The position numbers and the translations under genes were made by a program. A stretch of DNA of 64,000 nucleotides from Cloeon dipterum (lineage: Eukaryota; Arthropoda; Insecta; Ephemeroptera; Baetidae). Position 1 is the stretch's first letter, and each line of letters opens with the position of its first letter. This document shows, one piece after another, positions 29,901 to 61,643 of this stretch. The notes beneath the pieces were generated by a model. The model saw only the letters and a list, made by a program, of their open reading frames with translations, was not told the origin of the DNA and did no database searches. Where the stretch lies: NCBI RefSeq assembly GCF_949628265.1, contig NC_088788.1, positions 34,954,335 through 35,018,334 on the forward strand, given 5' to 3'.

Positions 29901-32778
29901 TCCTGCCAGTTCCTGGCCTTCCCTTGCCCCGGGCTCAGACAGTACGGAAGGGACTTCACGCACGGCAACTGCTTCACCTGCGGCGATGGCAGTTCGTGCG
30001 GCGAAATGGGCATCAAAGCGCCCCAAAGAAGCGGCCGAGGAGCCCTCTACTTAGCCACGCGTGCTACGAAACCCTATTGTGGTTGGTGATGACAAAATTC
30101 GTTCAGAGAGATGACTTGTTAAATTCGTGCAATGAAGTCTTGACAAGGGAAACGCTCCTCTATTAATCCAAAAAAATGTGGTATTTTAGCTACAATTTTA
30201 AAGTTTGTGATAAAAGGATGACAATTTTCAAAAACAAATAGCTCCCGTTCCTTTATGATTCGGTAAATACACGCCCGAGTTAATTTCTTGAAAAGCATTT
30301 AAATTTTAAGAAACTTTTTTGTTATATTTAAATTAATTTCCATAAAATTTCAAGAGAGAATTTTAATACCAGATTTTTCAACCTTGTTAGGGAATTCGGA
30401 ATGACAATCAAATTAGATTAATCATTATGTTCTTCACGAAAGAACTGCCATTTATTGGGCACATTCTTTCAAAGTCACATCTTTGATGTAGGTATGGGAA
30501 ACACTAAAGAGACTAATATATTTATTTTGTACGACCAGGCAACATCATAAATGCATTTCCAGTGCTCTGGAAAATCGAATTTAGAAATTTAACGGATTTT
30601 GTGGAAGTTATATTTTTTTCTTATTAATTTTCATAAAATGAAGCTTCATTTTAGCAATTAAAAATATTTTCTGTCCCACTTAGTTTGGATCAACTTTTAA
30701 AAAAGTTTTCCCAGAAATTCGGCAGAGGAAAATACGCAAAAATTGCGAATTTTATCAGCTTTCCGAATTTGAAAAGAATTTTAATCTAGCTCTCATAGCA
30801 GTTGAATTAAAAAGGCCTTTTGTAATTAATCAATTTATTTTCAATTCGATTTTTTTATTGAAATCTGGAAAAAATTTTTGAATCCAAGATATATTTGAAA
30901 GATTTTTATAGTTCGAGATTTGAATGAGTGCAACCTGGAAAACCGCAAACAACGCAACGTTTTTCTCCAGAATTCTGTCATCTTATTTTAAACTCTGTAT
31001 GATGTTGATAAAAGAGCCATTTTTTCAGATGAATATAGGCGTGTTCCCCTTTTAAAGTGGAATGATAGTGATTTTTTTATTTAAAAAAATGAAATTTCAT
31101 GTTGAGTTAACCCTAACTGACCTATTTTTTCCATGTACTTCTGACCAAAAGTGCCCCAAAATCTAATTTTTCGAATTTTACCGGTTACGCCCTCTTTTTT
31201 TAGCATAGGAAATCAATCGCTTCCGGGGTGAGAAAATTTATGAAAATTTAACAGTGAGAAAATAAAAAATAGTGCTTTTGAGTCTTTAAAGAAATTTTTT
31301 ATTTTTTCAAAAATTGCAGATTTTCAAAAGGGGTCTGTGTTTGGCCTCATTAAAATTCACTAGTTCATAGTAGCTTTAAATACTGCCTAAATTCTGAAAG
31401 CTGATTAAATTTCCAGTTTTTCCCCACTCAGCAAAATTTTCTCAAATTCACCATTTTTGAAAAAAAATCGTCTGAAAATTTCAGCTGGCCGTTAAAGAAC
31501 GTTTAAAATTTTTTTGGGGAAAATCAAAATACCCAAAATTAAGTTAATTTATTCAAGAATCATCTCAGAAAAAATGTTTTTTTTATTTTAATAATTTAAA
31601 TGATTTTCAGAGGCAAACTCGGACCCTTATGGCTATCAGAGACTGCGTGTAATATAAATAAATTTTTTATTGATTTTCAAGGACAGATTCATTTGCTACC
31701 ATGTGCGAAAATTTCAAATTTTTCTGATAATGAAAACGTAATTAAAATGATAATTGAGTTGCGCGCCGGGCACCTTCTGTAATGCAACCAGAAGCGACGG
31801 CATGAAACGCCCCCCTCTGTTGGCCAGCAGCGCTGGGCGCTGACCAATCAGATTGTTTTTGCCAATTTTCTCCGAAATTTACAGTGCTGCACTATGTTTT
31901 CTCACATGATTTGGAATCCTCTCATCGAGATCTATCGGATAGCCAGAGTCTTTTTTTGGGGAAATGCGGAATTTCAGAGTAAATCGCGATTACACAATTC
32001 CGTTGAAAATTCTCCATTTAAAACAATGCTAAGTTTGAGGCCGATTTTCTCGAAAATTTACAGTGCTGCCTATGTCTTTTTTTAACTGTACATGATTTTT
32101 AGGACCCAATCTGTATGTGTGTTAAAGGATTTGGCGGGGAAATCCACTATCATTCCTCCTTAAATTCAATCGTCTGATTAAATTGACCAAAAATAATGCA
32201 AAACTTGTATTCTCATGCAGGACAACAGATCAGAACGTCTGTTGAGATTTCCCCGAGTTCAAAGCTGACAAGAGGCACTATGTACTTGCAGCTGCACCAC
32301 AGCTCAACCGTGACGACATTTGAGCTCAGCTCCTCACGCTTGGGCTCTCAGTAAGAGGAAAAACGAAATAGAAAATGAATTGCATTTAAAACAGAAATAA
32401 CAGTTTAATAAATAAAATATTACGTTGCTTTCAGAGCTTTGGACATGATTAGCGGTGGACAAGAGCTGAGTGCCATCGCCGTGGCGAATGCTCACAGTAT
32501 AACTTCAGAAAAGACGCCGATTTTGTATGCTGCGTTGATTTTCAGGCCGAAAACAGGGCCGGCTGGAGTAATTACAAGCCAACAAGTTATGCTGGACAGA
32601 ATAACAGTCACAAACCAAGACAAGCAAAGGTAAATTTTCGATTAGTAATATTGATGCAGTTAATAAAATGATTTCAAACTTTAGGTGGTACTTCTGTGGC
32701 GGAAATACAACAGTCAAATACTCCAATACGCAAAAGAATAAACCCCTAATTCTGAAATTAGACCAAATCCGCTGCTGA
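20930..32778 (+). CDS. Secreted pancreatic-type triacylglycerol lipase
   Basis: Hydrolyses ester bonds of neutral lipids or phospholipids outside the cell. Exons: 20930-20999, 26979-27125, 27704-27838, 27901-28061, 28118-28358, 28655-28885, 29827-30081, 32221-32350, 32435-32629, 32685-32778, giving 552 residues with consistent phases. The N terminus MFVFSLSSALIYLAAARLAS is a signal peptide. ETKFYLYTN, KILLHGYKG (oxyanion region) and VISVDW are lipase-family landmarks. The catalytic triad is Ser227 in GFSLGAQVAG, Asp254 in GLDPAS and His340 in LCSHARAVDLF, so the enzyme looks active. The last ~170 residues (TMYLQLHHSSTVTTFELSSS onward) resemble the C-terminal PLAT-like domain seen in longer animal lipases. 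Two large introns (6.0 and 2.1 kb) carry repeats. The start is chosen for the signal peptide and the intact frame. Confidence 0.92.
21000..26978 (+). other. Lipase intron 1 (6.0 kb), no gene seen
   Basis: AT-rich with scattered short open frames and no recognisable domains. A TATAAAAG box at 24478-24485 precedes a moderately GC-rich stretch and could be an internal promoter. A half copy of the foldback repeat family lies near 26715-26800. Confidence 0.6.
24478..24545 (+). promoter_or_regulatory. Possible TATA-type promoter inside lipase intron 1
   Basis: TATAAAAG at 24478-24485 is followed by GCGCGCTCTGTG and, about 55 bp downstream, AACAGTCGATT, which resembles an arthropod initiator. The spacing is longer than the usual ~30 bp and no downstream coding exon was identified, so this is weak. 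Confidence 0.2.
29285..29560 (+). repeat. Repeat family D copy (lipase intron)
   Basis: Shares GCCAAAAATTAAGAACAT with the piece at about 2658 and GATTTCGATCCCTATG, TAAATCGTGAATTTACAG and GGGAGACAAATGGTTGAT with 19935-20150. Confidence 0.6.
30082..32220 (+). other. Lipase intron 7 (2.1 kb), AT-rich with a short duplication
   Basis: No gene. Two similar segments (about 31861-31920 and 32039-32100) share CTC-GAAATTTACAGTGCTGC and an ACATGATTT tail, so they look like an old local duplication. A GC-rich island at 31758-31850 stands out in an otherwise AT-rich intron. Confidence 0.5.
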
Positions 32779-38048: not shown

Positions 38049-39401
38049 ATGAAGAGAAGTAAAAGTTTACTCTCGAACAAATATGTTCTCGCGCTAAGCG
38101 CAGCCGGCACCACTTTCGCTGGAGCGATTTTTATGAAGTATGTATAAAATCAACAATTTTCATTACGTACATTGTTTTAATTTAAAATTTACAGGGAATA
38201 CATGGGTGGAAGGAAGTTCGAAGGGAAAGAGCAGGCAGAAGGAAAGGTTGTGATCATCACAGGAGCAAACACGGGAATCGGCAAAGAAACTGCCAGGGAA
38301 TTGGCCAAACGAGGTGCGAAAGTTTACATGGCATGTCGAGACATTGACAAGTGTGAAGAGGTAAAAATACACTATAACAATTATATATTAGGCTTAATTA
38401 TACTTTAGGCTCGTGAAGAAATAGTCATAGAATCGAAAAACAAGTATGTATACTGCCGAAAATGTGACTTATCTTCTCAGGAGTCGATAAGAACATTCGT
38501 CAAGAGATTTAAAAATGGTAATTCTATTTTTTTACAATAATATCGATATTATGTGTACCATTAAATTGCAGAACAGGATCGCTTGGACATATTGATCAAC
38601 AATGCTGGAGTGATGCGATGTCCTCAATCATTCACCAAAGAAGGGTTAGAATTGCAGCTCGGAGTCAACCACATGGGCCACTTTTTGCTAACATGTCAAC
38701 TTTTAGACTTGTTAAAGGTTCGCAATATGAAACTTGATCTTGTAAACCTACTCACAAGCTATTTTAATTGTATAGAAATCCCAACCGAGCCGTGTGATAA
38801 CGGTTTCCAGCATCGCACACACTCGAGGCACCATCAACAAGGGCGACCTGAACAGCAAAGCAAAATATGACCCAGCCGACGCATACAGCCAGAGCAAACT
38901 GGCAAATGTTCTATTCAGCAAAGAGCTGGCGGAACGGTTAAAAGGTTTGCATCGGCACTTAGTTCATCAGATTGGAACAGATACAATTAACAATATCTTG
39001 ATTCAGGCACTGGAGTGACGTCTAATTGCCTCCACCCTGGAGTTGTCGATACCAAGCTCTTCAGGCACATGGGCTTTTTCAAAAGCAAAACAGCCAGCTT
39101 GTTTGTGCGTCCGTTGATGTGGCCTTTCGTCAAAACTGCTCGTCAAGGAGCCCAGACGACGTTGTTTGCCGCCCTGGACGAATCGCTCACCCAGGTTTCA
39201 GGGAAATATTTCAAGTAATTTGAATAAGGAATTATTGGAATGAGCTAAATGCAATTTATTTCCTTCCATTTGTTCCTTAGAGAGTGCGCAGAGTACCCTG
39301 TGGCGCCTCAAGGTGATGACGACGCGATGGCCAAGTGGCTGTGGGCGGTCAGCGAAAGGTGGACTCAGGCCAGCAAGGATTGTGATAGGTATGCAAATTA
39401 A
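38049..39401 (+). CDS. Short-chain dehydrogenase, retinol dehydrogenase 11-14-like
   Basis: NAD(P)-dependent oxidoreductase, probably acting on retinoids or other lipophilic alcohols and aldehydes at a membrane. Exons: 38049-38137, 38195-38360, 38409-38517, 38572-38717, 38776-38944, 39007-39214, 39281-39401, giving 335 residues. A basic then hydrophobic N terminus ([18 protein letters not shown]) looks like a membrane anchor. The cofactor motif TGANTGIG is at about 52-59, followed by NNAGVM. The catalytic Ser is in [11 protein letters not shown] and the catalytic Tyr207/Lys211 in [20 protein letters not shown] is typical of the RDH11-14 group. It reads toward a paralogous SDR on the other strand, 288 bp away. 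The exact substrate cannot be told from sequence. Confidence 0.9.
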
Positions 39402-39689: not shown

Positions 39690-42646
39690 TCAGTGCTTGC
39701 TCTTCTCGATGCTTTTGATGCCGACCAGTTGGCATGTTTTTTCATACAGGGCTTTGGTCAGATCTCCGTTATGGGCTTTCTCTGCCATGTTTGTCTCAGA
39801 GCAGTCCCTGGTTAATTTTTAATAATAATTTTGAAAATTCTGAATGCGTGCATGGTACTCACGCGAAGTATTTCCCAGTCGTTTTTTGTAATCCGGATTC
39901 GATGGCCAGGTAGACAGTGGTTTGACAACCCTGGTGAGGGTTTTTGGTGAAGAGCCAAATCCAGGGCACCATGGGTGCCTTCAGGATGATAGAGCTGCTG
40001 AAGGGCGAATGCCTCATGTGCTGCGTGCCGCGTACCATTCCAGGGTGCAGAGAGTTGAAAGTTACGCCGCTTCCTTTAAATTAAACATACAGAGAATTTG
40101 TGAAAAATCCTTTTACATTAGCCTGAAATACTATTTAAATTAGGGGAAAATCTAACATTTTCCCAGGTTGCCGTTGATTTGTGAGAAAATCGACTGCAAA
40201 GTTTGTTAATCAAGCATTGTCTCCCTACTGTAGAACCACGATTTATCTCAAAATTAAGGGATTTTCCCCAAAACACGCAAACCACTGGATAGAGAAAAGA
40301 GGGATCGAAATCAAGCAAAAAAATTGTTTTTATTTTTCAAGAAATATGGCAAAATCTAATTTAAAATAAAATCCAAACGTTACAACTGACGCCTGCAGGA
40401 TCATACTCATGCAATAATTTTCATGCGCGTGCCACGGCATACAGAATAGCTAAATTTAGTACAACGATTTTCTCACCCTTCAATCGTTTTGCCATTTCCA
40501 CTGTCATCATAACCAAGGCCAATTTGCTCTGACCAAACGCCTCGCGAGACGAGTAACACCCTTCCATGTTAAGGTTTTCCATGTGAATGTCTCCAGCAAA
40601 GTTTGCTACGCAGCTCACGTTGATCACTCGGCCCTTGCGCGCTTTCAGCTTTGGCAATAGGAGGTGGGTCAGCAGAAAAGGGCCTGTTTCACATTTCTAG
40701 TTTTAAAAGAAGTCTCAAAATGATTCATTTCACTTGCCTAAATAATTTGTTTGGAGATGAAACTCAAATCCGTCGACCGTCCTTCCTTCCGGGTGAAAAA
40801 CCACTCCTGCATTGTTGATCAAGATGTCCACCTCAGTGTTTCCTGTTAAAATTATTTTTTCAAGTACATACTTGTAAAACGAGTATTCCGTCAACTTCAT
40901 TATTTCGTCATCCGAACGTATGAATGAGAAATATTTGTGTTTTGTCTTTGTGAATTCGAGTATTTTGTCTTATTCACGATTTTTATCATCTTGATTGTGC
41001 CACAAAAACATTTTTCGTTCTGCTATTGTCGAAAAGATTGTATTTTAATGTTAGCGAAAACGTTTGTTCAAAAAGGGAACCTGACCAGAAGCTGTAGATT
41101 ACTTCAGAACTTCTTCTACGATTTGTGTAGCCGAGACAGATTTGAAGATGTGAGTGTCTGACGCTGACGGATCTGAACGTGACGCGGAGGATACCGTTTT
41201 TGAAGAAAACTAAGTGTTGATTTATGTGATAAGTATGAATGATTGCATTCTGAAGTAACCCATAATCAAAGTTGTTATTTGCCAAGACGTCATTTTAAAT
41301 TAAAATCGACGAAATTTAATCATTCTTAAAATTTATACCAATAACATTTTGATTTTCCGAACTAAATCCAACGAGCTAACAACCCAATTATTACTCTTTG
41401 AAACATAATTGGCATGAGGTCAAGAAAACTCTACGAAATTCATCATTCTCTACATACCATTTAAATATTTCTTTTAAATAATTATTTTTTTGTGTTTTAC
41501 GGGATGATTTTTGGAAATCTCTAAGATTCCATCTCCTCGTGGTGCAATATAAAAAAATGGTTCCTCTCGCTGAGCCCAATCAAACTCACCTACGTTAATT
41601 GAAGTTTATAATTAAAATTTTGGAAATGAGATCAGGATTTTGGATGAGATCAAGACGAGCCTTACGGTGGGCAATACTGATGGATAACACTCTAAATTTA
41701 GGGTTGAAAATATTTGCGAAACACGAAAAATTCGTGCAATTTCTTGAAAACAATTTTTTTATGAATAGTGATTATCCGTCAAAGAGCGATTTATACCTGG
41801 CAATCAGGTGAAACCTGAGTGTTTTAAAAATAATAGAATAATTACCTAAGTTGGCGACGAATTGCTTGATTGATTCAAAGCTGCACAAATCAAGCTTTTC
41901 CACGATTAGAACGGCGTTTTGCGCAACTTTTCGAACTTCGTCGCGCGCCTCTTCGCCCTTTTTCTCGTCTCTGCACGCCAGAATCAGTTTGGCGCCTGAA
42001 AGAAATAGTATGATTTTTAAATTTTACACGGAAGCCGTAGAAAAATAGCTAACGAATACAGCTTGTATGCAAATTTGTACATTTGCTTGAGTGCACGACA
42101 TATTCGTCCATAAAAAGTTGCACTCTTAGGCTTTCTATGCTCGGAGTGTCGTTACTACTACTTTTTTGCTGCTTGTATCCATCAAACACAACAAGTGGAG
42201 AATGTTGGATCAATGATTAATTTACTTGCGTGTAACGTAGTAGTTGGAAAATATTTATTTAAAAAAATATATATTTAGTAGTGATTTTTCATACCACTTT
42301 AAATTTTTTATTAAAAAAAATCCCGTTTTTTATTCCGAAATTTAATTAGCGTAAAAAAATCACCCTTCTTGGCTAGTTCCTTGGCCGTTTCGAGCCCGAT
42401 GCCGCAATTAGCTCCAGTGACGATGACCCACTTGCTGTCGATGCGCGCCTTGCTGGGGCAATCTGCTCCCCCCATGTACCCCCTGCAATGGACGAATGAA
42501 TAAAAAATGTGCGACTTGACAACCCTACGCACTCACTTGATGCAGGTGACGACGCCGACGAACAGGGCGACGACCCACGGCCACCAGCTGGACAGGGGGT
42601 CTTCGCCGAGGTACTTGACGAACTCTGGCGGCTCCGCGTCCACCAT
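39690..42646 (-). CDS. Retinol dehydrogenase-like SDR lacking the catalytic Tyr (likely pseudoenzyme)
   Basis: Exons in transcript order: 42537-42646, 42364-42482, 41846-41995, 40738-40842, 40477-40683, 39863-40073, 39690-39807, giving 339 residues. The N terminus has a hydrophobic anchor (WWPWVVALFVGVVTCIKG). The cofactor site TGANCGIG (about 59-66) and NNAGVV are intact. The YxxxK position reads AFGQSKLAL, so the catalytic Tyr is Phe211 while Lys215 is kept, and the usual VSS(I/V)AH is VSCVANF. Reductase activity is therefore doubtful, although cofactor binding may persist. The intron 40684-40737 uses a GCAAGT donor (GC-AG). Convergent with the 38049 SDR, from which it probably arose or with which it shares an ancestor. 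Confidence 0.88.
40145..40330 (-). repeat. Repeat family D copy (SDR intron)
   Basis: Minus-orientation copy containing AATCAAGCATTGTCTCCCTACTG, ACCACGATTTATCTCAAAATT and GGGATCGAAATCAAGC. It lies in the 404-bp intron between exons 39863-40073 and 40477-40683. Confidence 0.6.
40843..41845 (-). other. 1-kb intron of the SDR with repeat fragments
   Basis: No coding sequence. The part at 41395-41620 resembles the repeat at 13290-13590 (both contain CATAATTGGCATGAGGT or ACAATTGGCATGAGGT, then TCAAACT). It is followed directly by a half copy of the foldback family at about 41630-41720. Confidence 0.5.
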
Positions 42647-53632: not shown

Positions 53633-54290
53633 CAGTTTCACTGTAAGTGTGCCTGCCCGCCCTCAGCTGGAGCGATAGTTCGGATACGCGCCAAATGGTC
53701 CGTTGAGAAGAAGTGGGATGAGCAGCATTCCCACTTTTCAGTTTTTGTTACCGCTACCGCCATCTGTGTCCACTGTCCCAAACTATAAAGCACGCTGCAG
53801 GACTGGGATCTGTAAGGGAAGCGTTAGCATTGCTCTTGTACCGTGACAATCGTGACTACGAATACGAAAGTGGCGGTGCGGGTGAGCAGCATTAACAACG
53901 CATAAGAAGCTCGCGCTCAGATTGCAGCTTGCGAGAACGAGGAGCAACTTGGCCCGGTGATTAAGGATTTGTCGGTGAGGTTCAGCATTATTTACATTGC
54001 CGAGTGATCTGTAAACAAATTTATTGTTTCTATTCCAGGCCTCATTTTCAATCGGTGCGGTTGTTCAGGTTACATCTTTTGATGCATTAATCAGCAGCCT
54101 AGACCGCGATAGTTAATCTCTGTCCAAAAATCTCTGCATTGTCCAGGGTCTCCTAATTCAGCAGGTGAGATTCGGATTTTCAGTGCTTGCTGTTTGCGTT
54201 TGCATGAAGAAATTGTTTTAAATTTATAGCATTTAGAGCTCAAATTACATTATTCAGTCCAGTTTATTTATGTTGTACATAATTTTTCAG
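53633..54290. promoter_or_regulatory. Shared head-to-head promoter region of Ndc80 and HDAC1
   Basis: The 5' ends of Ndc80 (minus) and HDAC1 (plus) diverge from here. GCGCCAAA at 53688-53695 matches the E2F consensus (TTTGGCGC on the minus strand), fitting a cell-cycle gene. The probable Ndc80 leader exon begins just left of it. HDAC1 has an AG acceptor immediately before its ATG, so its leader exon also lies in this interval. Transcription start sites cannot be fixed from sequence. Confidence 0.5.
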
Positions 54291-54291
54291 A

Positions 54292-56859
54292 ATGACCACT
54301 CAAACACCACACAACCGCCGAAAGGTGTGCTACTACTACGATAGTGACATTGGCAACTACTACTACGGGCAGGGACACCCGATGAAGCCGCACCGCATGC
54401 GGATGACCCACAACCTGCTGCTGAACTATGGCCTCTATCGCAAAATGGAAATTTACCGGCCATACAAGGCTACGGGCGATGAGATGACCAAGTTCCATAG
54501 TGATGACTACATCCAATTCCTACGGTCCATCCGACCGGACAACATGTCCGACTATGGCAAACAAATGCAGAGATGTGAGTCAAAATATTGCTTCCCCTTC
54601 GCAAACATACCCTAATTTCTGAGAGATCAAATCCGCATTTTGTCGACAAGTGTTTCAAATAAAACAAATTTTATTTTGCAGTCAACGTCGGTGAAGATTG
54701 TCCTGTATTTGATGGGCTCTTTGAGTTTTGCCAGCTGTCGGCCGGAGGCTCCGTGGCAGCCGCTGTCAAAATCAACAAGCAAGCGTCAGACATTTGCATC
54801 AACTGGGGTGGCGGACTGCACCACGCCAAAAAGTCTGAGGCGTCGGGCTTCTGCTACGTCAACGACATTGTCCTTGGAATCCTTGAGCTTCTCAAATATC
54901 ACCAGCGGGTGTTGTACATCGACATCGACGTCCACCATGGCGATGGAGTCGAGGAGGCTTTTTACACCACAGACCGTGTGATGTGCGTCTCTTTCCACAA
55001 GTATGGAGAGTACTTCCCTGGAACTGGTGATCTCAAGGATATCGGCGCGGGAAAGGTAAATTTGTTTACTTTCGTGATGTTTACATGGACCACTAGTCCA
55101 TAGGTTTTAATCTAGCATTGTTTTCGAGTTACGTGTACTGTAAAAATATTTAGGAAAAATTTAAAATCAATTTAGAAACAAACTATGTTTGATCGTGATG
55201 ATTTTTATGAGTTAATTTGACTTTGTAAATCATTATGAACCTATATGCGAGAGCTGCGCATGCGTCAGAGCTGGCTGGAACAAAGTCATTCGTAATGGCA
55301 TTCTCTCTGTAAGTGCTCAAACCAGCTGTGACGCATGCGCACTTCTTGGATATTTTAGATTCATATTGTTTTGGCGGGAAAAGGTTCTACTTGTGCTACG
55401 CACGTCGCTCTGGACCTTTTGGTCGGAAAAAATATCCACTCTACCTGATTTGACCCTCAAGAATCGATTTGGTGTGCTCGGAAACTTCGTCAAAGACGGT
55501 CTTTTATAAGAATAAAATTTTCTATTGCTCTTACTGTCTCAAGAAAGCTTATTTCTAGCTCTTATACAAACACAATCTAATGTAAGCTCTGTTATTTTGT
55601 GATTTCAGGGCAAGTATTACTCGGTGAACATACCGCTGAGGGACGGCATCGACGACGAGAGCTACGAGAGCGTGTTCAAGCCAATCATCGCCAAGGTGAT
55701 GGAGACATTCCAGCCGAACGCAGTGGTGCTGCAGTGCGGCGCGGACTCACTGACCGGCGACCGGCTTGGCTGCTTCAACTTGACCATCAAGGGACACGGC
55801 AAGTGCGTCGAGTTCGTCAAGAAGTACAACATCCCGCTGCTGATGGTGGGTGGTGGCGGCTACACAATACGCAACGTGTCGCGCTGCTGGACCTACGAGA
55901 CGGCGGTCGCGCTCGGCGAGGAGATCCCTAACGAGCTGCCCTACACAGACTACTTCGAGTACTTTGGGCCAGACTTCAAGCTGCACATCAGCCCATCCAA
56001 CATGACCAACCAGAACACAAACGAGTACCTGGACAAGATCAAGAACCAGCTGTTCGAGAACCTGCGCATGCTACCGCACGCGCCAAGCGTGCAGATGCAG
56101 GCCATTCCAGAGGACGCCATGCAGGTGGACAGGGAGGACGACGACAACCCAGACAGCCGGCAGAACCAGGCCGACAAGGACAAACGGGTGTCCGCCAACA
56201 ATGAGTTCTCCGACAGTGAGGACGAGGGCGACCGAAAGGAGCAGAAATCTCACAAGGGAAAGAAGCCCAGACTGGAAAAGCTTGAGAACAAAATCAAGGC
56301 CGACGAGAAACCTGTCGAAGACACAAAAGACAATGGTGAGTAACAACTGTATTTTCCCCCAACAATGAACTTTTTTCGCCGCCTAAACCATATGAATGCG
56401 AGAAGTGCGCGTGCGTCAGAGCTGGTTTGAGCACTTGCAGAGAGATCGCCTGTACGAATGACTGTCAGATCCTGCCAGCTCTGACGCATGCGCAGTTCAC
56501 GCAAATAGGTTCAGATTGTTTTGGCGGCAAAAAAAGTTCGCACGTCGCGCTGGGTGTTTTGGTCAGGAAAAATATCCATTTTACCTAATCCGACCCTCAA
56601 GAATCGATTGGTGTGCTCAGACTCCGTAAAAGATGGTCTTTAACGACCCAAAGGGCCGAAATACATTTCTTCCAGCACATTTCAATTTTTGACTCTTTTT
56701 CACTGGTGGGTACCAGCTGCCCACGTGTCCCAAAATTTGCCAGCTGGCGCAGCGCGGCTGGCAGAGACCTCTACCTACTTGATTTTGTTTCTAAAATGCT
56801 GTTAACCACTTGAATTTTATGTTGCAGGTGCTAGTAATGCAACGGCCTCGGCACAGTAA
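54292..56859 (+). CDS. HDAC1: Class I histone deacetylase HDAC1/Rpd3
   Basis: Zn-dependent removal of acetyl groups from histone lysines, the catalytic core of Sin3, NuRD and CoREST complexes in the nucleus. Exons: 54292-54574, 54682-55055, 55609-56335, 56828-56859, giving 471 residues. Starts [20 protein letters not shown]. The catalytic His pair is His141/His142 in [15 protein letters not shown]. Zn ligands are Asp177 and His179 in DIDVHHGDG and Asp265 in [13 protein letters not shown]; the transition-state Tyr is in GGGGYT. The tail is acidic then basic ([21 protein letters not shown], with CK2-type serines) as in HDAC1/2, ending in a tiny last exon ASNATASAQ. Introns 2 and 3 each carry a copy of the same foldback repeat. 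AATAAA near 57256 is a likely poly(A) signal, about 50 bp from the stop of the convergent SelM-like gene. Confidence 0.97.
55235..55512 (+). mobile_element. Foldback repeat, copy 1 (HDAC1 intron 2)
   Basis: A hairpin with arms GCGCATGCGTCAGAGCTGGC (from 55256) and CCAGCTGTGACGCATGCGC (to about 55340) surrounds a ~40-bp loop. It is followed by ~170 bp including TTTTGGTCGGAAAAAATATC and TCAAGAATCGATTTGGTGTG. The flank matches copy 2 in HDAC1 intron 3 in the same orientation. Non-coding; probably a non-autonomous DNA element. Confidence 0.75.
56366..56640 (+). mobile_element. Foldback repeat, copy 2 (HDAC1 intron 3)
   Basis: Same family as 55235-55512. The right flank (TTTTGGTCAGGAAAAATATC, TCAAGAATCGATTGGTGTG) is parallel to copy 1, but the central hairpin with its loop is reverse-complemented. 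Here the left arm also extends out to TTTTTTCGCCGCCTAAACC, giving a longer inverted repeat with TTTTGGCGGCAAAAAAA. Copy e of the AGAGGTCTCAGC MITE follows immediately. Confidence 0.75.
56641..56774 (+). mobile_element. MITE family A, copy e (HDAC1 intron 3, right half)
   Basis: TTAACGACCCAAAGGGCC leads into CAATTTTTGACTCTTTTTCACTGG and ends GCAGAGACCTCTA. It abuts the right end of foldback copy 2; the left half of the MITE is missing, so one element probably inserted into or recombined with the other. Confidence 0.6.
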
Positions 56860-57308: not shown

Positions 57309-57928
57309 TCACAACTCTGTTTTTTCCTTTTTCGATTGTCCTTTCTTGCCAGCCTCTTTTTTGGCTTTTGGCACAGTGACCGGCGCTTCTGCTCCACACT
57401 GGCCTGCATTAGCTGGTGGCTGATGCGATTGCCTGAACTCCTTCCTGACGTTCAGTCCGTTGTCTAGAAAAACAACTTCCCATTCATCCTTGGGCAAAAT
57501 CCAAATGGGAACATCGTCAACCACCTGAACAAAAGTTCACAATATATACTCCTGAAACAGCAAAAACGCAAACGAACCTGGTCGCGATCGCCGTAGAAGG
57601 TCACCATAGGTTTCTGATCCTCCAGCCTCCAAATTTCTACGTTTTCGCTAAAATTAAAAAAATTTCATTCGAAAATTCAGTTTTTTTATAGAAGAGGTTA
57701 CTAAATTGGTACTATTTTCTTGTAGAACTTGCACATCTCCTTGTATTTGGTTTCCTTGCACTTGGTAGGGAGCTAAAAGAATATCATTTCTATGAAATTC
57801 AGAAAGCGAATTAAAACATTGAAAATATTTACCTTAACAACTGCCCTAACTGCTTTTCCCTCATCGTCTTGTACGGTTTCCGAAATGACGGCTAAAACTA
57901 AAGCTAACGTCAGCGTGAGTATTTTCAT
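57309..57928 (-). CDS. SelM/Sep15-fold secreted protein, Cys form
   Basis: Exons in transcript order: 57833-57928, 57702-57772, 57578-57647, 57309-57524, giving 150 residues. The N terminus MKILTLTLALVLAVISETV is a signal peptide. LPTKCKETKYKEMCKFYKKIVPIYENV aligns without gaps to the SELENOM segment that starts CGGU and runs to IPFYHN: Sec becomes Cys and the upstream CGG is lost. KPMVTFYGDRD and WILPKDEWEVVFLDNGLNVRKEF match the following strand and helix. The tail is Lys-rich (KKEAGKKGQSKKEKTEL). Family members are ER-lumen thiol redox proteins; this one lacks a two-residue CxxC-type site, so its redox role is uncertain. Same intron phases and an equal 71-nt second exon show it is a tandem paralogue of the gene at 58253. 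Confidence 0.75.
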
Positions 57929-58148
57929 TGCTGTGATATATATCCGTGTTGCGTCGACCACCTCTGGAAACCAACTGTAAGAATTCCTACGTGTTCTTTT
58001 CCGCTCCCTGATATTGACAATGCCGAGCAATACGTGGACGAATCCCAGTGTGGGAAAGAGATAACAAAACTTCGCAATTAGATAGTGGACGGGCAGGATT
58101 TTATTTTTTGTATTTAACAAATACAATATTGCTTGAAAATTTGAACTA

Positions 58149-58220
58149 TTCCGTTTGAAGGCGTCAATCAGCGGCCACCGCTTGATGGGTTTGCGCCACT
58201 GACATCATAAATTAAACGAA
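58149..58220 (-). ncRNA. SECIS element in the SELENOM 3' UTR
   Basis: Reading the minus strand: lower helix TTCGTTT (58220-58214) with AAACGGAA (58156-58149, one bulge); quartet ATGA (58208-58205) opposite TGA (58166-58164) giving tandem G-A pairs; upper helix TCAGTGGC with GCCGCTGA (8 bp including one G-U); unpaired AA of the apical loop at 58192-58191, 12 nt after ATGA; and a small ACC/GGT pair closing a terminal loop (form II-like). All core eukaryotic SECIS features are present at the expected spacing. It recruits SBP2 and the Sec-specific elongation factor so that UGA 58630-58632 is read as selenocysteine. Confidence 0.8.
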
Positions 58221-58252
58221 ATAAGGTCAAATTTGCAGCAGCAATAATTATG

Positions 58253-58823
58253 CTACAAATCTTCCTTTGGTGACTGAGTCTCAGCAGCACTCGGCGCTGG
58301 TTTCACTTCCTTCAGCTTAATTTCGTACTGCTTGAACAACTCGTGAATCTCTTCTACCTGGTTTCTCCACCAGATTTTCTCCCGCCCGATTTCCTACGAA
58401 ATTTAATTTTTAATGTTTGCCAGAATCAAGTTAATTTGAAAATAATTACTTTATCATCCTCGTAGAACACTAATGTAGGTTTCATATTCTTAATGACGAT
58501 GCTCCTTGTGTTTTCGCTAATTGTAAGCAAAAATGGATAAATTTGAATAATAATTTGTTATTTCCGCGCTTACTATTTATTTAAATGCAGGTAGTAAAAT
58601 TGACTTGGGCCTGGGAACATCCCTAGGTGTCACCCACCGGAATGCTGCGTTTGATAATTAATGAAATCAAAAATACATATAAAACTATGAAATTCTTAAG
58701 GATATTAATATGTATTTATATCTTACGAGAAACTCGACACGACGAACTCCCAAAGACGCGTGAGACATGGCGATCAGCATAAGGGACAACACCACGGTGA
58801 AATTTAGTAAATTTTGACTCATC
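58253..58823 (-). CDS. SELENOM: Selenoprotein M, with in-frame UGA selenocysteine
   Basis: Exons in transcript order: 58727-58823, 58574-58644, 58450-58516, 58253-58393. Exon 2 reads HSGG, then TGA at 58630-58632, then HLGMFPGPSQFYYLHLNKYEN. Against vertebrate SELENOM (CGGU-QLNRL...IPFYHN), Sec, Phe, Tyr and Asn fall at identical spacing, with the partner Cys replaced by Ser. Then KPTLVFYEDD and EKIWWRNQVEEIHELFKQYEI match the last strand and helix. A SECIS element lies 33 bp past the TAG stop. SELENOM is an ER-lumen thioredoxin-fold redox protein. In the frame that reaches the UGA, the only ATGs in exon 1 begin at 58780 (MLIAMSHASLG), a short signal peptide; a longer one starting MSQNLLNF at 58823 is one base out of frame across a 4-A run (58800-58803), either a sequencing error or a real shift. 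The product is 110 residues from 58780. Confidence 0.82.
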
Positions 58824-59561: not shown

Positions 59562-61643
59562 ATGGGTCGAAGGTCGATTAACACCACGAAAAGTGGGAAG
59601 TACATGAATCCCACTGATCAAGCTAGTGAGTGGCTAAATTTTACCACACATTTTATCAATAACACACTCTGTTAATTAATTTGTGTTCATTTTACAGGGA
59701 AAGAGGCAAGGAAAAAAGAGCTAAAGAAAAACAAGAAGCAGAGACAAGCGGTTCGGACGGCTGTGTTGAAAGGCAAAGACCCTTCGCAGATCATCTTCGA
59801 GTTGGAGAAGATTGATAATATGGGTAAAAAGATTCAAGTTGACTATTATTATGAATTCTGATTCATTGAAAATCTTGCAGAGTACAATGTTTACCAGCCA
59901 TCGCCTTTGAACGAAAAAGTCTTAAAGGACAAGAGGAAAAAACTGAAGGAGACATTCAACCGAGTCATGAAACTTTATGCAAGTTATTCAAGCAAATATT
60001 TGCGCCAAATTAACGTTTTTATTTGCAGAATAAGGAGGATCCTGATAAGTGGATGGAAATGAGGAAGCTGGAAATGGAATATGATAAAAGAAGGGCGATG
60101 CTGATTCAGTTCTACGAAAGTGTCAAATACGCCCAGAACGTTTCCGTGAACGAAATCCCGTTGCCCAGCATCAACATCCCAGACAGTCTGACCTCGAGCA
60201 TCCCCCTGCCTACGGACTTGCCCTCCACAGTTGTCCACGGAATATTGAAGAAGTCGTCAGCCTATGGGTATAATGATGTTTAAAAAGCGCTTAAACAAAA
60301 TTTTACTATTTTGGACATTTCCAGAATTTTGACCAGGATGTGGTAAATTATATCTTAGTTATTTGCTTAGTGCTTTGAGGATTTAGAAGCAAGAAATATA
60401 AAACTATTTTTTTATGTCTTTTAGCATCATGGATGGCCAGTGCCCTGGAGTTCCTCCAGGACCTCCACCAGACTTAAGCATTGACGATGAGGAAGGTCTT
60501 GATGGTACGTATTTTATGCCCAGTTTTTGAACTGATTGATATTAATTCGTCTTCACAGAGGAAACTAACGAAAATGGCATTGAAGACCGGCCTCGAACGA
60601 TTCGGTTTGCCGAGGACAAATCAGAAGAGGACCTGATGCCACCAGCAACCGAGGACGTGGAGTTGCCTAACAATGGCAAGGCTCAGCCAACCGCTCTCCA
60701 ACAAAAAATGCTGCTAATGGCTGGTCAAGATATTGACGAGTTCATGAAAGAGGTGATTGCTCGCGTCAAGTAAATTTTTGGGATTGTTTGAATGCATTTT
60801 TGATTGATAGATGGAGGAAGTGCACAGGAAAAGAGAGCAAGACAGGCAGGCAGATATGAACAGCAGAATATCCAGGCTAGAGGCTGAGGATAAGGTTGTA
60901 GACGACACCCAGAAAGCTGCCCCTGGAATTGGTATGCGACAGAATTCCTCCCAATCTTTTTGATTCTATTGACGCACTTCTCACATCAACCTAATGGAAA
61001 ATAAAATTTGCAGCGCCACCTCCGCCCCTGATGTACCGACCCATGATGCGGCCAATGATGCATCCACCACCCGGTGTACGACTGCCGCCGGGACACCCGC
61101 AGTCGCGGCCAGCCATGCCTCCGCCACCCCCTGGCATGCGAATGGGCATGCGGATGCCGCCCGGTATGCCTCCAGGCATGCCGGGCAGAATGATGGGCAA
61201 CATCCCACGACCTCCCGGCATCCCGCCTCCTCTGGGAATGGTGCCGCCACCTCCGGGCGCGGGAAACCCCAACGTGTTGTCCGCAGCTCCGCAACTCATT
61301 TCCAGGCAGCAGACGGTGGAGTCAACCTCAAAGAAACAAGGCGCCACAATCGAGGCTAAACCGCAAATCAGGTTCGAATTTCTAACAAAAATTGTGTTCC
61401 TTTTGAGACTGACCAAATGTTTTCAGGAACCTGAGTGCCGACATTACCAGGTTCATGCCCATGTCGGTCAGGGCCAGAAAAGATGAGAAACCGAGCAAGA
61501 GGAGCGATGCAAGAGCTGAGGCCAACAGCTTTGCCAGGGCGCAACAACAGGCTGCCGCTGCAGCCAGCCACGCTCAAGCAAACACCCAGAACAAGGACGA
61601 CGCCTACATGCAGTTCATGAATGAAATGTCCTCGTTGCTCTAG
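59562..61643 (+). CDS. WBP11: WW domain-binding protein 11 (splicing factor)
   Basis: Nuclear, spliceosome-associated protein that binds WW domains (for example PQBP1) and protein phosphatase 1. Exons: 59562-59625, 59698-59823, 59881-59978, 60029-60267, 60425-60504, 60559-60752, 60811-60931, 61014-61371, 61427-61643, giving 498 residues. Starts MGRRSINTTKSGKYMNPTDQ, the family signature, then KEARKKELKKNKKQR, KDPSQIIFELEKID and LNEKVLKDKRKKLKETF. HGILKKSSAYG and TIRFAED resemble the conserved mid-region and a PP1 docking motif. PPGPPPDL and a Pro/Met/Gly-rich block (about residues 310-420) are WW ligands. The C terminus KPQIRNLSADITRFMP...DDAYMQFMNEMSSLL matches the conserved end. The intron 59979-60028 uses a GCAAGT donor. 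AATAAA near 61711 is a likely poly(A) signal. Confidence 0.95.

What the first reader, a model, noticed from the sequence alone, without database searches (positions are those of the whole stretch)
58149..58823. Selenocysteine-encoding SELENOM gene with a complete SECIS element
The second coding exon runs HSGG-TGA-HLGMFPGPSQFYYLHLNKYEN. Taking TGA as Sec, Sec, Phe, Tyr and Asn line up with vertebrate SELENOM at the same spacing, and translation continues through two further exons matching the family. The 3' UTR has all SECIS core elements in order: ATGA, a 12-nt gap to AA, an 8-bp upper helix, tandem G-A pairs and a lower helix. Ordinary gene finders would stop at the UGA and split or drop this gene. 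Many insects have lost most selenoproteins, so a Sec-containing SelM is informative about the lineage.
Basis: partly seen in the sequence, partly recalled or inferred. Interest (0 to 1): 0.92.

Follow-up and report, generated by a model that had tools for sequence, protein, structure and literature searches.

The report
Divergent selenoprotein M gene with twin
This is most likely a working animal gene that reads a stop codon as selenocysteine to make a small selenoprotein M-like protein, sitting beside a cysteine-containing twin; it is an unusual member of a known family, because it lacks the partner cysteine that such proteins normally use.

Summary
Minus-strand exons 58822-58727, 58644-58574, 58516-58450 and 58393-58253, with GT-AG introns, give a 124-aa protein if one in-frame TGA (58632-58630) is read as Sec. 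A SECIS starts 30 nt after the stop: Rfam SECIS_1, 32.5 bits against a gathering score of 35; E 4e-4 for the locus, 0.015 for the window. The finding omits two things. First, a tandem paralogue at 57928-57309 has exons 1 and 2 of identical length, identical intron phases, and TGC (Cys37) where gene 1 has TGA. It is recognisably SelM-like (z about 10 against human SELENOM). Both genes place residue 37 at the Sec position of Pfam Sep15_SelM, but both score below its cut-off. Second, the motif CGGU is SGGU here, and the Sec protein has no cysteine at all, so Sec must work without an internal resolving thiol. Family-level naming is sound; subfamily is less sure, since gene 1 aligns better with SELENOF while its layout is SelM-like. 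No genome is held, so the Sec machinery and the insect claim were not testable. SelM is already described in ticks. New variant of a known kind; moderate interest.

The parts
58727..58822 (-). Gene 1 coding exon 1 (96 nt): ATG and a hydrophobic, signal-peptide-like start
   Evidence: donor GTAAGA; signal peptide judged by eye
58574..58644 (-). Gene 1 coding exon 2 (71 nt) with the in-frame TGA
   Evidence: acceptor CAG, donor GTAAGC
58630..58632 (-). Sec codon TGA (residue 37), preceded by Ser-Gly-Gly
   Evidence: residue 37 at Pfam PF08806 position 9, the Sec position of human SELENOM, assuming that the one unmatched residue in the gene 1 stretch lies after residue 37
58450..58516 (-). Gene 1 coding exon 3 (67 nt)
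58253..58393 (-). Gene 1 coding exon 4 (141 nt), ends Lys-Glu-Asp-Leu then TAG
   Evidence: KEDL read as an ER-retention type ending (established knowledge, not tested)
58148..58222 (-). SECIS element in the gene 1 3' UTR (covariance-model match 58153-58217)
58100..58105 (-). AATAAA poly(A) signal of gene 1, after the SECIS
57833..57928 (-). Gene 2 (Cys paralogue) coding exon 1 (96 nt)
57702..57772 (-). Gene 2 coding exon 2 (71 nt); TGC (Cys37) at 57760-57758 where gene 1 has TGA
57578..57647 (-). Gene 2 coding exon 3 (70 nt)
57309..57524 (-). Gene 2 coding exon 4 (216 nt), ends Lys-Thr-Glu-Leu then TGA; no SECIS match after it

Best explanation
A functional animal selenoprotein gene of the Sep15/SelM family, most likely a divergent SelM. 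It makes a small ER-luminal thioredoxin-fold protein in which the UGA at codon 37 is decoded as selenocysteine through the 3' UTR SECIS (SBP2, eEFSec, tRNA-Sec). It is one of a tandem pair: its neighbour carries Cys at the same site and has no detectable SECIS. Since the resolving Cys of CxxU is Ser here and the protein has no other Cys, the selenol probably works as a lone nucleophile, reacting with peroxide or mixed disulfides and being regenerated by an outside thiol such as glutathione or a partner protein. Shown: gene structure, SECIS, alignment at the Sec site, Cys twin, absence of Cys. Inferred: Sec incorporation, ER location, fold, chemistry.
For: Open frame through the UGA over four exons with canonical splice sites. 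SECIS_1 full-length model match, E 4.3e-4 locally and 0.015 window-wide, 30 nt after the stop and before AATAAA. The paralogue has Cys exactly at the UGA, exons 1 and 2 of identical length and identical phases; gene 1 vs gene 2: BLASTP E 4e-4, beginning at Sec37/Cys37, and z 4.6 with 1 of 1,000 shuffles as good. Pfam Sep15_SelM is the best Pfam match of each: E 0.0092 (gene 1) and 5.3e-4 (gene 2), both placing residue 37 at profile position 9, where human SELENOM has Sec. Gene 2's only PDB match up to E 10 is mouse SelM 2a2p, E 0.88; the two-gene profile also has 2a2p as best of 177,635 PDB sequences, weakly (E 0.16). Ser at -3 does not depend on exon 1: no other AG lies between the acceptor and the TGA.
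Against: Both Pfam scores are under the cut-off of 26 and gene 1 has two other chance-level Pfam matches close behind (PLCC E 0.026, HMG_box_5 E 0.046). The SECIS score is under Rfam's gathering score. Exon 2 of the two genes is only 24 of 71 identical in DNA. In small profiles gene 1 is matched or beaten by 53 of 4,194 scored shuffles (SelM), 27 of 3,911 (Sep15) and 7 of 4,212 (both). PDB search with gene 1 alone finds no family member. The dissimilar 3' UTRs give no sign that gene 2 once had a SECIS. No transcript, orthologue or Sec-machinery evidence was available.
Confidence: 0.87

Rival explanations
1. Gene 1 is a decaying pseudogene and the TGA is a nonsense mutation.
For: Strong divergence from known members and loss of the CxxU cysteine.
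Against: The only in-frame stop falls exactly at the family's Sec position, all splice sites are canonical, the frame ends in an ER-retention type tetrapeptide, and the SECIS is in place.
Confidence: 0.05
2. The UGA is read through without selenocysteine, as reported for insect SPS1-UGA genes.
For: SECIS-less UGA readthrough is described for SPS1 in Hymenoptera and some Paraneoptera (PMC4561486, passages seen).
Against: Those genes lack a SECIS according to the same passages; this one has a match in place. Its Cys twin fits the Sec/Cys exchange pattern.
Confidence: 0.04
3. Gene 1 is a SELENOF (Sep15) or a third subfamily, not SelM: same family and Sec-decoding, so it overlaps the best explanation, but misnamed.
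For: U-x-L-G-x-F-P after the Sec is shared with human SELENOF (sequence recalled); z 6.6 against SELENOF with 0 of 2,000 shuffles as good, 2.2 against SELENOM with 79 of 2,000.
Against: z only 0.65 against Drosophila Sep15 (504 of 2,000). Sec-to-Tyr spacing (+19) equals SelM; Sep15 has one residue more. No Cys-rich N-terminal region, KDEL-like end, and a SelM-like neighbour with the same exon layout.
Confidence: 0.25

Closest known systems
SELENOM / SelM (mouse structure 2a2p)
   Same: Short layout, Sec at Pfam PF08806 position 9, F+11, Y+19, N+21 and P+32 from Sec, UGA with SECIS, C-terminal Asp-Leu as in mouse SelM
   Different: SGGU instead of CGGU, no Cys in the protein, below the Pfam cut-off, 11 of 52 residues identical to human around the Sec site
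SELENOF / Sep15 (Drosophila 2a4h; human sequence recalled)
   Same: Same Pfam domain; ULGxFP-like stretch after the Sec
   Different: No Cys-rich N-terminal domain, no CGU, SelM-type spacing, KDEL-like end
Tick SelM (Amblyomma maculatum, PMC3840058)
   Same: Arthropod SelM transcripts are described there (passages seen)
   Different: Sequence not available to me; not compared
Duplicate pairs in which one copy lost Sec and SECIS, such as SPS2/SPS1
   Same: One copy keeps Sec and SECIS, the other does not (PMC4561486, passages seen)
   Different: Here a tandem pair of a presumed ER thioredoxin-fold protein, with Cys in the second copy

Membership tests
Eukaryotic selenoprotein | In-frame UGA with homology continuing beyond it | tested here: met
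Eukaryotic selenoprotein | SECIS in the 3' UTR | tested here: met
   32.5 bits, slightly below Rfam's gathering score of 35 (nothing reported)
Eukaryotic selenoprotein | Genome with tRNA-Sec, eEFSec, SBP2, SPS2 | not testable with these tools
   no genome held; ARAGORN finds no tRNA in the window
Sep15/SelM (PF08806) | Score above the curated cut-off | tested here: not met
   16.5 and 20.4 bits against 26, though best match of each, E 0.0092 and 5.3e-4, aligned at the Sec position
SELENOM | CGGU motif | tested here: not met
   SGGU in gene 1, PTKC in gene 2; CGGU given in PMC10668967 (passages seen)
SELENOM | Signal peptide and C-terminal ER-retention type ending | tested here: inconclusive
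   N-terminus judged by eye only; KEDL and KTEL endings present
SELENOM | Groups with SelM, not Sep15, in a tree | tested here: inconclusive
   Pairwise only: gene 2 is SelM-like (z 9.7 against 2.8 for human SELENOF), gene 1 ambiguous; no eukaryotic collection for a tree

The most novel reading that the evidence does not exclude
A Sec-only SelM: a presumed ER selenoprotein in which selenium is the sole thiol-type redox atom of the protein, paired in tandem with a Cys form that also lacks the resolving cysteine. The family would then have shifted from CxxU thioredoxin-like chemistry to a one-selenol mechanism using an outside thiol, possibly in an insect, where the paper passages I saw name no Sec-SelM.
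Probability: 0.4. Interest if true: 0.6.

Novelty: new variant of a known kind. Interest (0 to 1): 0.42.

Why it matters
A Sec form retained beside a Cys twin is a natural pair for asking why Sec is kept. A SelM with no cysteine at all lets one test whether the CxxU pair is needed for SelM function. If the organism proves to be an insect, it would bear on how far selenoproteins were lost in that lineage. A gene finder that treats UGA only as stop would truncate or drop this gene.

Tried and rejected
Tried: Rfam at the gathering threshold (nothing reported). A loose SECIS pattern of my own (not selective: mean 1.47 hits per simulated window over 30). Search for a decayed SECIS after gene 2 by 3' UTR alignment (score 21 against a shuffle mean of 20, 111 of 300 shuffles as good). 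PDB search with gene 1 alone (one irrelevant weak hit, E 1.1). NCBIfam (one irrelevant hit for gene 1, E 0.08; none for gene 2). Relatives in viral contigs (600 pattern stretches, none confirmed), in genome contigs (593, none confirmed) and gene 2 in phages (no match); these are viral, prokaryotic and phage collections, so the misses say little about animals. Nine paper searches showed no insect Sec-SelM and no SelM lacking the CxxU cysteine in their listings or in the passages I read. Listings were capped in three of them (20 of 117 papers, 20 of 22, 15 of 27), I opened 9 papers, passages only except one section of PMC2500217, supplements were not available, and the library lacks most subscription papers.

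Considered and rejected: exon 2 skipping (the twin keeps an exon of the same length with Cys at that site); Fep15 (detected only in vertebrates according to PMC3316567, passages seen). Structure prediction was not run: the tool takes proteins that the DNA gives letter for letter, and a spliced product is not clearly of that kind, so I did not send it.

Full report
Observation. On the minus strand, four exons (58822-58727, 58644-58574, 58516-58450, 58393-58253) with GT-AG introns join to 375 nt that encode 124 residues and a TAG, if the single in-frame TGA at 58632-58630 is read as Sec. Sec is residue 37. The product starts with a hydrophobic, signal-peptide-like stretch (by eye) and ends in KEDL.

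SECIS. The 3' UTR holds ATGA (58208-58205), a 12-nt gap, AA (58192-58191), a 9-bp upper helix including two G-U pairs, TGA (58166-58164) and a 9-bp lower helix (58222-58214 with 58156-58148). It begins 30 nt after the stop codon and lies before AATAAA at 58105. Rfam SECIS_1 matches over its whole length at 32.5 bits: below the curators' 35, so nothing is reported at the gathering threshold, but with E 4.3e-4 in the 1,851-base locus and E 0.015 against all 4,227 families in 64 kb, where only one other match reached E 1. The stretch folds better than all of 200 shuffles, z -3.06. A loose pattern of my own was unselective, 1.47 hits per simulated window over 30, so pattern matching alone would prove nothing.

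The twin. A second gene lies downstream on the same strand: exons 57928-57833, 57772-57702, 57647-57578, 57524-57309. It encodes 150 residues ending KTEL. Its exons 1 and 2 are 96 and 71 nt, as in gene 1, and the intron phases agree throughout; exon 3 differs by one codon (70 against 67 nt) and exon 4 is longer. Codon 37 is TGC where gene 1 has TGA. BLASTP between the two gives E 4e-4 over 51 columns starting at Sec37/Cys37; by shuffling, z 4.6 with 1 of 1,000 as good. DNA identity of exon 2 is only 24 of 71, so the duplication is old or the genes evolve fast.

Family. Pfam Sep15_SelM is the best match of both: 16.5 bits (E 0.0092) for gene 1, followed by two chance-level families (E 0.026 and 0.046), and 20.4 bits (E 5.3e-4) for gene 2; the curated cut-off is 26. 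From the match coordinates both put residue 37 at profile position 9, exactly where human SELENOM has its Sec; gene 1's stretch holds one residue more than the profile, which I assume lies after residue 37. Gene 2 against human SELENOM gives z 9.7 with 0 of 2,000 shuffles as good; gene 1 gives z 2.2 (79 of 2,000), but z 6.6 against human SELENOF (0 of 2,000) and only 0.65 against Drosophila Sep15 (504 of 2,000). With small profiles, gene 2 beats all of 4,151 scored shuffles of 5,000 (SelM) and all of 4,024 (SelM and Sep15 together), but is matched by 96 of 4,128 with Sep15 alone; gene 1 is matched by 53 of 4,194 (SelM), 27 of 3,911 (Sep15) and 7 of 4,212 (both). Gene 2's only PDB match up to E 10 is mouse SelM, E 0.88; gene 1 alone finds none of the family; the two-gene profile has mouse SelM first, weakly, E 0.16. 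The Sec-to-Tyr distance is SelM-type in both genes; Sep15 has one residue more. I read this as a divergent SelM pair, with Sep15-like or separate-subfamily status of gene 1 not excluded.

What is unusual. SELENOM is described with CGGU (PMC10668967, passages seen). Here the motif is SGGU; the Ser codon lies inside exon 2 and does not depend on the choice of exon 1. The whole gene 1 product has no cysteine. Gene 2 has PTKC, also without a Cys at -3, with other cysteines at 46 and 122. The usual intramolecular selenenylsulfide cannot form in gene 1. If made, the protein must work as a lone selenol resolved by an outside thiol, or its Sec serves another role. This step is inference. A single-base difference separates TCC from TGC, so an assembly error or a private variant should be excluded.

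Context and lineage. The pair lies between HDAC1 (plus strand, ending near 56340) and WBP11 (plus strand, starting near 59562, head to head with gene 1); Pfam supports both, their ends are judged by eye. Of 30 other ORFs of the window given to Pfam (a hand-picked part of 235 stop-to-stop ORFs of 70 aa or more, with one shorter one), 12 matched at E 0.01: besides HDAC1 and WBP11, a protein kinase, lipase exons, ferrochelatase, a short-chain dehydrogenase (below its cut-off), a Sec23 homologue, Ndc80 and a WD40 gene. This is an animal-type genome; its class could not be determined, and no genome is held. Insect selenoproteins that I saw named are SelH, SelK and SPS2 in flies and mosquitoes (PMC2500217, section 26 read), and MSRB1, TR, SPS2, GPX and SelenoK for Paraneoptera (PMC7376646, passages). 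The centipede has 20 selenoproteins (PMC4244043, passages), and ticks have SelM (PMC3840058, passages). A Sec-SelM in a non-insect arthropod would be ordinary; in an insect I found none in print with the searches listed under Tried and rejected, which are limited.

Verdict. The finding is real and its main reading is probably right (0.87 for a Sec-decoding Sep15/SelM-family gene). It is a new variant of a known kind, interesting for its missing cysteine and its Cys twin more than for being a selenoprotein.

Noticed in passing
57309-57928: Cys-containing tandem paralogue of the Sec gene (MKILTL...KTEL), not mentioned in the finding; no SECIS match downstream.
   Followed up: yes
31283-31355 (minus): Weak Rfam match to C/D snoRNA snoR25 (38.6 bits, gathering 50, E 0.012).
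   Followed up: no
54283-56340 (plus): HDAC1-like histone deacetylase gene, tail to tail with the SelM pair (Pfam Hist_deacetyl; ends by eye).
   Followed up: partly
59562-61640 (plus): WBP11-like gene, head to head with the Sec gene across about 740 bp (Pfam Wbp11 for one exon; extent by eye).
   Followed up: partly
38565-38867 (plus) and 40424-42532 (minus): Apparently two short-chain dehydrogenase genes close together in opposite orientations; the first has a sub-cut-off Pfam match, the second was recognised by eye only.
   Followed up: no
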